A stretch of 64,000 bases of DNA, taken from assembly GCF_001577775.1 (NCBI RefSeq), contig NZ_CP010835.1:1302001-1366000 (forward strand). The letters are read 5' to 3'. Within the stretch, counting starts at the first letter, position 1, and every line of letters starts with the position of its first letter. This document shows positions 18,430-34,390 of the stretch, piece by piece. Source of the DNA: Pyrococcus kukulkanii (lineage in GTDB: Archaea > Methanobacteriota_B > Thermococci > Thermococcales > Thermococcaceae). Made by a program: the position numbers and the translations under genes. Below the pieces are notes generated by a model, which saw nothing but the letters and a program-made list of their open reading frames with translations, made no database searches and was not told the origin of the DNA.

Positions 18430-19128
18430 TCATAAGCTTTCCCTAACCCTCCTTCTTATGTTGGGATCTCTATCCGCAAGTTCCTTTAGGAACTCTTCAA
18501 AGCTCTTCCAATCCGGTACTTCCTCGTCGAGGTAAATTCCAGTCCTTCCAATTCTGTCCCTCCTCGTAAGGACTTTAACCCTCTCTTCCACAATATCTAT
18601 GCTAACTCCCAAGATTTTAGCGACCTCGGGCTCCCTTCCAACTACTTCCCTCTCTATATGGCCCTCCTCTGTAGGAATTATTAGGATAAGCTTTTTATTC
18701 ACTCCAGGAACTCTCTGCTTGGTCTTCACTCCCCACAAGTCTAACATCCCTCCCCATTTATAAAATTCCAGTTCTCTATCCGTTGGGTTTACAAGAAAGA
18801 ATGTAACTGTTGTCTCTTCATCTATTTCTATATGTCCCTTAATTAAGTGCCATGGAGTAGCCATCACTATCCTTCTCCTCTGGATCAAATCACCTAGGGC
18901 CAGCTCTATCATGTAGCTTGGCACCCTGTACGGAATTACTATGTCTATATCACTGTCCTTCCTTACATCTCCTCTCGCAACGCTACCATAGACGTGGGGG
19001 TCAAAGTCTTTTAGGAGCTCCATTATTTTGAGAGCTTTTTCCCTCTTCTCCCAAAGAATCCTCCATCTCTTTGGGGGGTACACAACTTCCCTTTCATCCC
19101 AGACTCTAACGACTTTCTCCCTGGGCAT
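18430..19128 (-). CDS. Nucleotidyltransferase-domain protein with C-terminal winged-helix-like segment
   Basis: The protein has 232 residues from ATG 19128. The polymerase-beta-type motif is clear: HVYGSVARGDVRKDSDIDIVI (GS...DxD, about residues 46-66). The rest includes FFLVNPTDRELEFYKWGGML and a helical C-terminus with AKILGVSIDIVEERVKVLTRRDRIGR, resembling a winged helix. Catalytic domain size suggests a stand-alone nucleotidyltransferase (possibly acting on RNA or protein) rather than a small MNT antitoxin, and no HEPN partner is adjacent. The longer ORF to 19161 would begin inside a transposon remnant. A TATA-like CTTATATG (19159-19166 region) then allows a nearly leaderless mRNA from 19128. 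Confidence 0.8.
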   Translation of the reverse strand: MPREKVVRVWDEREVVYPPKRWRILWEKREKALKIMELLKDFDPHVYGSVARGDVRKDSDIDIVIPYRVPSYMIELALGDLIQRRRIVMATPWHLIKGHIEIDEETTVTFFLVNPTDRELEFYKWGGMLDLWGVKTKQRVPGVNKKLILIIPTEEGHIEREVVGREPEVAKILGVSIDIVEERVKVLTRRDRIGRTGIYLDEEVPDWKSFEEFLKELADRDPNIRRRVRESL

Positions 19129-19151
19129 CAAGAGAGTGTGGTTATTTTGGA

Positions 19152-19361
19152 TTAAAAACATATAAGGTTCTGAGCTCTTCTTCGGCTTGAGGGGGTAGGG
19201 TTCCTCTTAGGCGTCATAACTGACCCTTCAAGAGTTTTCATTGGTTTGCAGCCCCATTTCAGGATTATCGTTGGGAGCTCACTCCAAGAGTTCCAACAGC
19301 CAAGAAGAGGTTTGAAAGAACGCTCACCGGCGTTTTCTCTCCCAATACGATGAGAGTCACT
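19152..19361 (-). mobile_element. TnpB (IS605/IS200 group) C-terminal remnant
   Basis: A 69-codon open frame on the minus strand, without its own start and preceded by an in-frame TAG, reads IGRENAGERSF near its beginning and KPMKTLEG...MTPKRNPTPSSRRRAQN near its end. These match the tail expected for Thermococcales TnpB proteins (the RNA-guided nuclease of IS605/IS607 elements), downstream of the catalytic zinc ribbon. The catalytic residues and the rest of the gene are gone, so it is a dead fragment. It fills most of the gap 19129-19455 and abuts the nucleotidyltransferase promoter. The remaining bases up to 19455 show only a T/A-rich terminator-like stretch. Confidence 0.55.
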
Positions 19362-19455
19362 CTAAGAACTACCTCCGAATTACCTCTACTCCGTCCCCCT
19401 AAAGAGCGAGGCTTTCAAAAGAAAAATGTATAAAGGAAAGAAAGTTGTTCTAAAC

Positions 19456-21750
19456 TCACTTAATATTGGGCTTTGTCCCTTTTCTTCTCTGGATAGCGAA
19501 GAGTATCCCGAGGATCACTATTCCTATTCCCACCGGTATTTGGTTGAGTGACGCTGCAAATAGTGCAACTACTATTAGTGCTATTCTCTCTAACTTCCCT
19601 AGGTTACCTTTGAGCCATCCCGTGAGACCTATCGAAAGCATGTATAACACTAAGATCGTCGCGAATAAGTCGTAAACCACTGTTGCAACCATCTTGACAC
19701 TCCACTCTTGGACGGTTATTATGAACATTTCTGGATGGGTGAAGTAGATATAGGGTCCTATGTATCCCGCGGCGGCGTATCTTACAGCGTTTAATGCTGT
19801 CTTCCAGAAGTCACCACCTGCTAAAGCTGAGCCTGCGTAACTAGCTAATGCAACTGGCGGTGTTATATCAGCGAGTATTCCAAAGTAGAATACAAATAGG
19901 TGTGCTGCTAAAAGAGCTATAGCTGTTCCAAACCCTGGGACGTTCTGGTTGTAGGGATAAACGTTGCTAACGGCTTGGTATATTGCTGGGGCCATTACAA
20001 GTGAAGTTATAATATAGTTTGCCGTTGTTGGTACTCCCATTCCGAGTATTAAGCTAAAGATCATTGTCACCATCAATAATAACCATAGGTTCCCTCCAGT
20101 TAGATCTGCGAGCTTGTAACCTAATGAGTTGGCAAGACCAGTAATGGTTAGTGATCCTTGAATCAAACCAGCACTCGCTGCGGCTAGCATTACCGCTGTG
20201 CTCGTTTTCCCGGCTTCTATCATTGACTCATATGTTGCGGAAAACATAGTTTTTCCATCTTTAGTCTTTGATATTGATCCCACTATTAGAGAAAACAGGA
20301 TCCCCATTATGCCAGTTAGGAATAGCAGGTTCTCCTTAGTCATCCCTATTGCTTGGTTTAGAGCGATGAATAGGAGGAACATTAGTGTTATATACATTTT
20401 TTCATTGAATCTCACGCCTCTTCCTAGTACTCCTAGAACAACGAGTGCCATGACAGCTCCGAGTAAGATTGGATAACCCCTGCCAGAAAACATTGCGAGT
20501 GTTCCTAAGATCACTACTGCAACGTATAGGGCTTCATTTCCATAAATCTCATCTTTTGAAATCCACGCAACCCATATTGCTACACCCAGGGAAGATATTG
20601 CCGAGATATGTGCAGGTATTCCCCAGACCAAGGCTATCGTTATTACGACTATTGGTAGCAGGATGTAGCTCTTTCTTAAGAAGTATTTTAGTGGTTTAAA
20701 TCCTTCCTTTGGCATTCCCCTCAATCCTAATCTCTTGGTTTCTCTGTCTATGAACAGATAAACTCCAGCGTAATAAACTATAGCCGGGATAACCGCGGCG
20801 ATTATTATCTTATTATAGGGTATACCCAAAAATTCTGCCATTATGAATGCTGCCGCTCCCATAATTGGTGGCATTAGCTGTCCGCCCGTGGAAGCTACAG
20901 GCTCCACGGCTCCAGCTATCTCTGGAGGGTAACCTGCCCTCTTCATTAGGGGGATCGTGAACGTTCCAGTGGTGAGGACATTTGCAACACTCGAGCCACT
21001 TACAGTTCCCATGAGACCACTCGCTATTACTGCTGCCTTTGCTGGTCCTCCGGGTCTTGCACCAAAGAGGGTTATCATGAACTCTGTTATGTAGTCACTT
21101 ATCCCTATCTTCAGGAGGAAAGCCCCAAAGAATATGAAGGCAAAAACGTAGATCGTCATGACGTAAAGGGGGGTTGCGAATAGTCCTTCACTTGCAAGGT
21201 ACATATGTTCCGCGAAGACCTCCCAATTAAATCCAATGTTATAGAGAGCATAGCTCAAGAATACAAGAACTATCAGCGGCAAAACCCAACCTATAACTCT
21301 CCTTGTTGCTTCAAGGACTACTAAAATCGACATAAGGGCAAATATAACATCTTTAGGATAGACTGTTGCCATTTCAGCGTAGCTGGGGTATCTAAAGAAT
21401 AGATAGAACATCGCTATTAGGGATAGACCTATGAGGGTATAGTCGAGGACTGAAATTTTCTTCATGAATCTTTTGGTTCTCTTCGCCGGATACAAGAGAT
21501 ACGCTATTAGGAGGATCATTCCTAGGACGAAGGCTTCTCCTTGTTGGCTTTGGAGTGTATACAGTAAGAACTTGGGCTTTATTCCTAGTCTCGAGAGCAT
21601 GTCGTAAAGTGCGCCGTTAAAGTTAAAAATGAACAAAATCTCATAAATTCCGATTAAGATCGCCGCTATGCTAACTATTCTCTCTAATTTTCTTGGTAGC
21701 TCTCTTGTCCGTGTAATAATCTCGAGTTTTTCTAGCTTGTTGTCCTCCAT
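19456..21750 (-). CDS. TRAP transporter fused permease (4TM/12TM, DctQM type)
   Basis: This 764-residue integral membrane protein fuses the small (DctQ-like, first about 170 residues) and large (DctM-like) subunits of a TRAP transporter. Some 16-18 hydrophobic helices are visible. Family marks include GLMGTVSGSSVANVLTTGTFTIPLM and STGGQLMPPIMGAAAFIMAEF, repeated in the second half as LILGMGVPTTANYIITSL and FGILADITPPVALASYAG. It catalyses Na+- or H+-driven uptake using the TAXI binding protein encoded upstream; substrates of TAXI systems are often dicarboxylates or amino acids, but this one is unknown. Confidence 0.93.
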   Translation of the reverse strand: MEDNKLEKLEIITRTRELPRKLERIVSIAAILIGIYEILFIFNFNGALYDMLSRLGIKPKFLLYTLQSQQGEAFVLGMILLIAYLLYPAKRTKRFMKKISVLDYTLIGLSLIAMFYLFFRYPSYAEMATVYPKDVIFALMSILVVLEATRRVIGWVLPLIVLVFLSYALYNIGFNWEVFAEHMYLASEGLFATPLYVMTIYVFAFIFFGAFLLKIGISDYITEFMITLFGARPGGPAKAAVIASGLMGTVSGSSVANVLTTGTFTIPLMKRAGYPPEIAGAVEPVASTGGQLMPPIMGAAAFIMAEFLGIPYNKIIIAAVIPAIVYYAGVYLFIDRETKRLGLRGMPKEGFKPLKYFLRKSYILLPIVVITIALVWGIPAHISAISSLGVAIWVAWISKDEIYGNEALYVAVVILGTLAMFSGRGYPILLGAVMALVVLGVLGRGVRFNEKMYITLMFLLFIALNQAIGMTKENLLFLTGIMGILFSLIVGSISKTKDGKTMFSATYESMIEAGKTSTAVMLAAASAGLIQGSLTITGLANSLGYKLADLTGGNLWLLLMVTMIFSLILGMGVPTTANYIITSLVMAPAIYQAVSNVYPYNQNVPGFGTAIALLAAHLFVFYFGILADITPPVALASYAGSALAGGDFWKTALNAVRYAAAGYIGPYIYFTHPEMFIITVQEWSVKMVATVVYDLFATILVLYMLSIGLTGWLKGNLGKLERIALIVVALFAASLNQIPVGIGIVILGILFAIQRRKGTKPNIK

Positions 21751-34313: not shown

Positions 34314-34390
34314 AACCTTTTTAACTCTCCCACTTTATATTTTTCTTCCGAAAACCTCACCCTTTAGGGTGGGACAGGTCACTTAGCTTT

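What the first reader, a model, noticed from the sequence alone, without database searches (positions are those of the whole stretch)
19152..19361. Dead TnpB C-terminus upstream of a nucleotidyltransferase gene
The minus frame ends with a typical TnpB tail (MTPKRNPTPSSRRR) but lacks the catalytic part and start. It marks an old IS605/IS607 insertion. Because omega-RNA overlaps the 3' end of tnpB, this stretch might be a surviving guide-RNA scaffold, and its end provides the TATA-like box for the downstream gene.
Basis: partly seen in the sequence, partly recalled or inferred. Interest (0 to 1): 0.5.

Follow-up and report, generated by a model that had tools for sequence, protein, structure and literature searches.

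The report
Decayed guide-RNA-only archaeal transposon copy
This stretch is not a dead nuclease gene but the worn-out copy of a short, protein-free mobile element whose better-preserved relatives, found in many heat-loving archaea, seem to encode only a guide RNA and would have to borrow the enzymes of related transposons.

Summary
The 69-codon minus frame at 19361-19152 exists, but it matches no protein family (0 Pfam, 0 NCBIfam) and, by alignment, is not in the tnpB frame. The stretch is most of a 258-nt decayed mobile element (19427-19170, minus). Better copies are about 410 nt without a protein gene: an IS200/IS605 left end with a BRE/TATA-like box, a 5' RNA domain seen only in these copies, and a TnpB guide-RNA (omega-RNA) scaffold ending in the right end. 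A model of the 5' domain built without the window copy finds it at E 9e-9 and finds the family in 53 of 94 Thermococcaceae genomes (up to 19 copies). Empty sites in related genomes, for at least 6 of 15 insertions tested, show precise insertion. Helices covary (91.5% of cells paired; 0 of 500 shuffles as good). The window copy lost the promoter and many helices and is a relic, not a surviving scaffold. The downstream gene's TATA-like box lies outside it. The family is a new variant of PATEs (protein-free IS605 derivatives). That its members make their own guide RNA and borrow TnpB and TnpA in trans is inferred.

The parts
19170..19427 (-). Decayed protein-free IS200/IS605-derived element (whole, 258 nt)
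   Evidence: Three collinear profile hits, covariance-model hit, ends placed by comparison with the family
19428..19434 (-). Left target-site-like TTTATAC directly before the element (family consensus TTAC; here ATAC)
19379..19427 (-). Left end; its near-terminal palindrome is damaged
19259..19378 (-). Remains of the 5' RNA domain (model hit 19382-19259); promoter part and first helices lost
19337..19356 (-). Hairpin CTCTC...GAGAG, counterpart of helix H4
   Evidence: Coordinates; helix family; a shifted version is predicted
19319..19334 (-). Hairpin AACGC...GCGTT, counterpart of helix H5; 5 of 6 pairs kept
19170..19258 (-). Remains of the omega-RNA 3' part and right end (...GAGCTCAG); helices H8-H11 deleted
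19152..19361 (-).
19151..19158 (-). TATA-like TTTTTAAT of the downstream gene, outside the element
18430..19128 (-). Nucleotidyltransferase gene from its conserved start
19456..21750 (-). Fused TRAP transporter permease gene, upstream neighbour

Best explanation
The stretch is a decayed copy of a protein-free IS200/IS605-derived element of the PATE kind. Better copies are about 410 nt: left end plus BRE/TATA-like box, a 5' RNA domain of several hairpins standing where tnpB would be, and a TnpB omega-RNA scaffold that runs into the right end, so that the host DNA just after TCAG would be the guide. Shown here by sequence: family, anatomy, precise insertion between TTAC and ...TCAG without target duplication, wide spread, covariation of helices, decay of the window copy. 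Inferred: a Y1 TnpA supplied in trans moves the element; its own promoter makes the guide RNA; a TnpB supplied in trans uses that RNA to cut the empty donor site (TTAC plus flank), so that repair restores the element. The window copy no longer does this.
For: Window copy found by models that exclude it. 53 of 94 genomes, 5 of 6 genera; 30 of 30 fetched loci hold a contiguous protein-free copy, 4 of them Pyrococcus-genus loci related to the training set. Right end GGTCAG in 75 of 78 unique copies; TTAC next to the left end in 50 of 72, control 54 of 1560 pieces. Empty sites for at least 6 of 15 insertions tested, best 180 of 180 nt at 99%. 73 pairs, 91.5% of cells paired, 38 pairs with changes on both sides, 0 of 500 shuffles as high. 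Same fold as 22 tnpB-borne omega-RNAs except H11, with class-specific compensated pairs in H10. BRE/TATA-like box in 46 of 58 copies, 3.7 expected. Copy number follows cognate TnpB number, rho 0.64. A family copy in G023 sits where a transcribed HgcC RNA outside transposase genes is expected (by inference).
Against: No RNA or protein data here: transcription, TnpB binding and cutting are not shown. 8 of 53 genomes with the element have no cognate TnpB hit at E 1e-30, the window's own genome among them. Scaffolds of protein-free copies are closer to each other (median 0.76) than to tnpB-borne ones (0.59), and hardly closer to those of their own genome (0.61). The correlation is not corrected for relatedness. 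The structure was drawn by hand after seeing the alignment; an earlier automatic consensus on 10 copies showed 0 pairs with changes on both sides. One longer copy, L017, folds only slightly better than shuffles (z -0.65). The 5' domain could serve single-stranded DNA rather than RNA.
Confidence: 0.65

Rival explanations
1. One reading: C-terminal remnant of a dead tnpB whose 3' end may survive as a guide scaffold.
For: The right part is homologous to the stretch where omega-RNA overlaps the 3' end of tnpB.
Against: Frame not tnpB; no significant match to the tnpB 3'-end profile; 5' domain of protein-free copies present; pairing lowest of 59 rows.
Confidence: 0.03
2. A passive PATE: the family moves in trans by TnpA, and its conserved structure serves single-stranded DNA transposition or is inherited; the RNA has no guide role.
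For: Terminal palindromes matter for IS605 transposition (established knowledge); scaffold not matched to local TnpB; 8 of 53 genomes lack cognate TnpB.
Against: Covariation throughout about 300 internal nt; BRE/TATA-like box; omega-RNA fold kept with class-specific compensation; G-T cells exceed A-C cells in internal helices (118 to 72 and 103 to 67), a modest sign for the sense strand.
Confidence: 0.22
3. A decoy: the protein-free RNA occupies TnpB and protects empty sites or hinders tnpB-bearing elements.
For: Same fold as tnpB-borne omega-RNA but a separate sequence class.
Against: A guide-like variable flank follows the scaffold as in real omega-RNAs; nothing here tests binding.
Confidence: 0.07
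4. The window copy is kept as a regulatory element of the downstream nucleotidyltransferase gene.
For: It ends 11 nt before the gene's TATA-like box; parts of two hairpins can still form.
Against: No family hit at this site in the other 8 genomes of the genus; fold no better than shuffles; TATA-like box shared with a genome that lacks the element.
Confidence: 0.03

Closest known systems
PATEs of Haloquadratum (PMC3119063, passages seen)
   Same: Protein-free, near-terminal palindromes like IS605-type elements, no target duplication, a short target oligonucleotide on one side, and terminal-only forms of about 50 nt (fused copies of about 46-50 nt here: L019, L021, L017).
   Different: The passages describe no promoter, no guide scaffold and no conserved internal RNA; here the internal part is a covarying RNA of about 300 nt.
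TnpB omega-RNA, sotRNA (Rfam RF02656; PMC12558985 passages)
   Same: Helices H8-H10 and H12 and the right-end position are shared with 22 tnpB-borne 3' ends; below-cut-off matches to sot0042.
   Different: No tnpB in the element; H11 differs; extra 5' domain; separate sequence class.
HgcC RNA (Rfam RF00062; T. kodakarensis HgcC1-5, PMC4247193 passages)
   Same: Protein-free copies and tnpB 3' ends both give HgcC matches (to 43 bits). In T. kodakarensis HgcC1-3 lie in transposase genes and HgcC4-5 do not; all five are transcribed.
   Different: Matches stay under the gathering score of 50; one tnpB 3' end passes it. HgcC covers only the 3' part; no Rfam match covers the 5' domain.
IS200/IS605 elements (Y1 TnpA with or without TnpB), e.g. 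L074, L075, L086
   Same: Left end and right end; target TTAC resembles that of IS608 (recalled).
   Different: No tnpA and no tnpB; a roughly 90-position domain instead of tnpB.

Membership tests
PATE | Too short to code for a transposase; no transposase gene inside | tested here: met
   30 of 30 loci without TnpA or the catalytic part of TnpB inside; only TnpB tail similarity in 4
PATE | Near-terminal palindromes related to IS605-type elements | tested here: met
   Left end shared with L072-L075, right end with these and L086, L096, L101; helices 1-2 and 13-14. In the window copy the left palindrome is damaged
PATE | No target duplication on insertion | tested here: met
   Contiguous empty sites for at least 6 of 15 insertions, length differences 0-8 nt; family-level, not for the window copy
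IS200/IS605 family, autonomous element | Encodes Y1 TnpA | tested here: not met
   None inside; none in the window's genome at E 0.001
TnpB omega-RNA | Conserved fold at the right end followed by a variable guide | tested here: met
   Family. Window copy: not met, H8-H11 missing
TnpB omega-RNA | Bound by TnpB and used to cut TAM plus guide | not testable with these tools
   Needs an experiment
HgcC (RF00062) | Gathering score of 50 bits | tested here: not met
   Protein-free copies reach at most 42.6 bits; no HgcC match at E 0.5 for the window locus L001
MITE with terminal inverted repeats | Terminal inverted repeats and target duplication | tested here: not met
   Ends ATTTTTC... and ...GGTCAG are not inverted repeats; no duplication at empty sites
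Dead tnpB | TnpB similarity in a frame | tested here: not met

The most novel reading that the evidence does not exclude
Thermococcaceae carry a widespread, long-lived family of selfish elements that encode nothing but their own guide RNA: a promoter, a new 5' RNA domain in place of tnpB, and an omega-RNA scaffold. They borrow TnpA to move and TnpB to be restored at the donor site, the non-autonomous counterpart of the TnpB retention system, and may account for transcribed HgcC RNAs outside transposase genes. The window copy is a fossil of one.
Probability: 0.5. Interest if true: 0.75.

Novelty: new variant of a known kind. Interest (0 to 1): 0.5.

Why it matters
If the mechanism holds, TnpB-type guide RNAs are not only by-products of tnpB mRNA but can be independent, mobile, multi-copy genes that use the nuclease in trans. 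That would be a natural system in which TnpB meets many different guides in one cell, a candidate identity for some HgcC RNAs, and a testable case of non-autonomous elements kept by RNA-guided cutting. The window copy alone is an ordinary relic.

Tried and rejected
Rejected: dead tnpB C-terminus. Rejected: surviving scaffold; the window copy does keep more pairs than a re-deal of its own letters (26 against a mean of 16.8 of 41, about 0.001), as a once-structured copy should. I first took its right-end stem as simply broken; it belongs to a subfamily (L017, L084, L090 and others) with a different long stem, partly still pairable (read by eye). Rejected: IS607 origin; an IS607 element (L018) lies beside a left end of this family, but only the left end was found there. 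Rejected: element-supplied TATA box.

Weak or negative results: a long-range helix (H7) has longer stems than shuffles (mean 8.3 against 5.1 nt), but mixing copies gives nearly the same (7.9), so it is not claimed; it pairs 55% of cells in the alignment. Matching of scaffolds to the local tnpB gave almost no signal (0.61 against 0.59). RNAalifold on 10 copies gave 0 pairs with changes on both sides. The 58 rows were chosen by a script that dropped copies over 88% identical or incomplete.

Literature: 10 searches listed no paper whose title or abstract start describes protein-free omega-RNA elements in Thermococcales; I read passages of PMC4247193, PMC12558985, PMC3119063, PMC10278001 and a find without hits in PMC9956272. 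The library lacks most subscription papers, so this is weak evidence of absence.

Full report
What was checked. The window is part of a 1,977,126-base single-contig genome, G000. The finding's coordinates are the 69-codon minus frame 19361-19155 plus its stop. That frame has no Pfam or NCBIfam match and no similarity to 25 TnpB proteins or tails, three of them from the same genome. Frames of that length are common in the window (221).

What it is. blastn in the window's own genome matched the region piecewise to other places, which include non-coding copies of an element of about 400 nt. A profile from 13 such copies, the window's left out, finds 19430-19379, 19354-19259 and 19257-19162 in order (E 1.2e-6, 1.4e-11, 5e-10); a profile from five tnpB 3' ends gives E 0.16 there. 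A covariance model (R1) of the 5' domain, from 10 copies without the window's, gives 19382-19259 at E 9.1e-9; the next best place in the window has E 0.15. By comparison with the family the element runs from 19427 (after TTTATAC) to 19170 (ending in TCAG).

The family. R1 hits 53 of 94 Thermococcaceae genomes, 5 of 6 genera, with 19, 14 and 12 matches in the three richest (strict filters, so lower bounds). All 30 loci fetched with that search hold a contiguous protein-free copy; 4 of the 30 are from the window's genus and related to the training set; one is cut by a contig end; tblastn finds only the TnpB tail region, in 4 of 30. From 83 loci 82 copies were extracted (L080 is split and was dropped), 78 of them unique. 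75 of 78 end in GGTCAG. Of 72 with a left end, 50 have TTAC within 18 nt of the anchor, 21 do not and one has no anchor; the control rate is 54 of 1560 pieces. Joined flanks of 15 insertions matched contiguously in sister genomes for at least 6 (L137, L139, L140, L142, L148, L154; length differences 0-8 nt); the best is 180 of 180 nt at 99%; another, L153, matched with 45 nt extra (list cut by the tool). Copies at different sites are up to 97.6% identical.

Anatomy. In an 82-copy profile, tnpB-bearing elements share the left part (positions 2-104 in L072 and L073, 2-70 and 2-75 in L074 and L075) and the right part (from 196-245 to 416-417 in L072-L075, L086, L096, L101); positions about 105-195 were found only in protein-free copies. 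A BRE/TATA-like box occurs in 46 of 58 copies (3.7 expected from shuffles), 16-20 nt before the first helix. On 58 copies plus the window row, 73 pairs drawn by hand are formed in 91.5% of 4042 cells; 38 pairs have changes on both sides; 0 of 500 shuffles reach any of the five measures; slid structures reach 40-53%. The omega part has the fold of 22 tnpB-borne ends: H10 is paired 90% in protein-free and 99% in tnpB-borne rows but 57% when strands are mixed between classes; H11 is not shared (54% in tnpB-borne rows). Rfam HgcC and sot0042 match both classes below their cut-offs; one tnpB 3' end passes the HgcC cut-off.

The window copy is dead. It lacks the promoter part and helices H8-H11. Its pairing, 26 of 41 cells, is the lowest of 59 rows (median row 67 of 73) though above a re-deal of its own letters. 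It folds no better than shuffles (z -0.14), while the copy at G000:C1:507139-507564 has z -5.85; L017, another copy of the genome, has z -0.65. G000 has no Y1 TnpA hit (E 0.001) and no cognate TnpB; its best TnpB match is 29% identical.

Neighbours. The nucleotidyltransferase is found in 9 of 9 genomes of the genus and conserved from the ATG at 19128 on. Its TATA-like TTTTTAAT (19158-19151) lies outside the element; the closest genome, G002, has CTTTTTAAT in the matching place without the element. Only G005 showed a match to the TRAP gene next to it; there the distance from the last matched TRAP base to the ATG is 275 nt against 573 nt here, a difference of 298 nt for an element of 258. In the other 8 orthologous loci no family hit lies at this site; G004 has a left-end-like piece about 0.9 kb upstream. 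No perfect empty site was seen for this copy.

Mechanism. Shown: mobility, precise ends, structural constraint, a promoter-like box. Inferred: movement by TnpA in trans and restoration by TnpB in trans guided by the element's own RNA. For: copy number follows cognate TnpB number (rho 0.64, 94 genomes; 45 of 53 genomes with the element have TnpB, 21 of 41 without it do) and TnpA (rho 0.44; 22 of 53 against 3 of 41); not corrected for relatedness, and TnpB counts reach a ceiling of 18. Against: 8 of 53 have no cognate TnpB hit, and scaffolds are not matched to the local tnpB. Transcription: in T. kodakarensis HgcC4 and HgcC5 are transcribed outside transposase genes (PMC4247193, passages). G023, whose contig length of 2,088,737 I recall as that of T. 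kodakarensis, has a 5'-truncated family copy at 1474300-1474633 overlapping small open frames; by interpolated gene number this fits TK1679, the site given for HgcC4. That link is inference.

What is known. Protein-free IS605 derivatives are known as PATEs, including forms of about 50 nt with fused ends (PMC3119063, passages); fused copies of about 46-50 nt occur in this genome. In 10 searches of an open-access library I saw no description of PATEs with a promoter-driven guide scaffold (calls listed in Tried and rejected). No Rfam match covers the 5' domain (window; 14 loci; 20 loci).

Noticed in passing
window 34337-34384, plus strand: Another left-end-like hairpin fused to an AGGTCA end (profile E 5e-4 and 1.7e-5), about 48 nt, between the sR12 and sR34 C/D RNA genes: a terminal-only copy of the same family.
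   Followed up: partly
window 18430-19161, minus strand: The nucleotidyltransferase open frame extends to an ATG at 19161, but conservation in 9 genomes points to the ATG at 19128 as the start.
   Followed up: yes
L018 2770-2824, minus strand: A left end of this family lies directly upstream of an IS607 tnpA-tnpB pair, as if the IS607 element sits in or beside an older copy.
   Followed up: no
G000:C1:521158-521265, 585812-585920, 935803-935913: HgcC matches (57.9, 49.4, 37.0 bits) at places where R1 gave no hit; what they belong to was not examined.
   Followed up: no
L020 with L081; L017 with L052: Copies at the same site in two species (same flanks); L017 and L052 differ strongly in the 5' half and hardly in the 3' half, which suggests exchange between copies.
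   Followed up: partly
L120 1290-1319: A CRISPR repeat (CRISPR-DR6 match) lies about 25 nt from the right end of a protein-free copy in G015.
   Followed up: no
family alignment A4, columns 117-141: The GGCCTC/GAGGCC hairpin shares its 3' strand with a possible long-range stem to GTGGCCT; the two exclude each other and could form a switch.
   Followed up: partly
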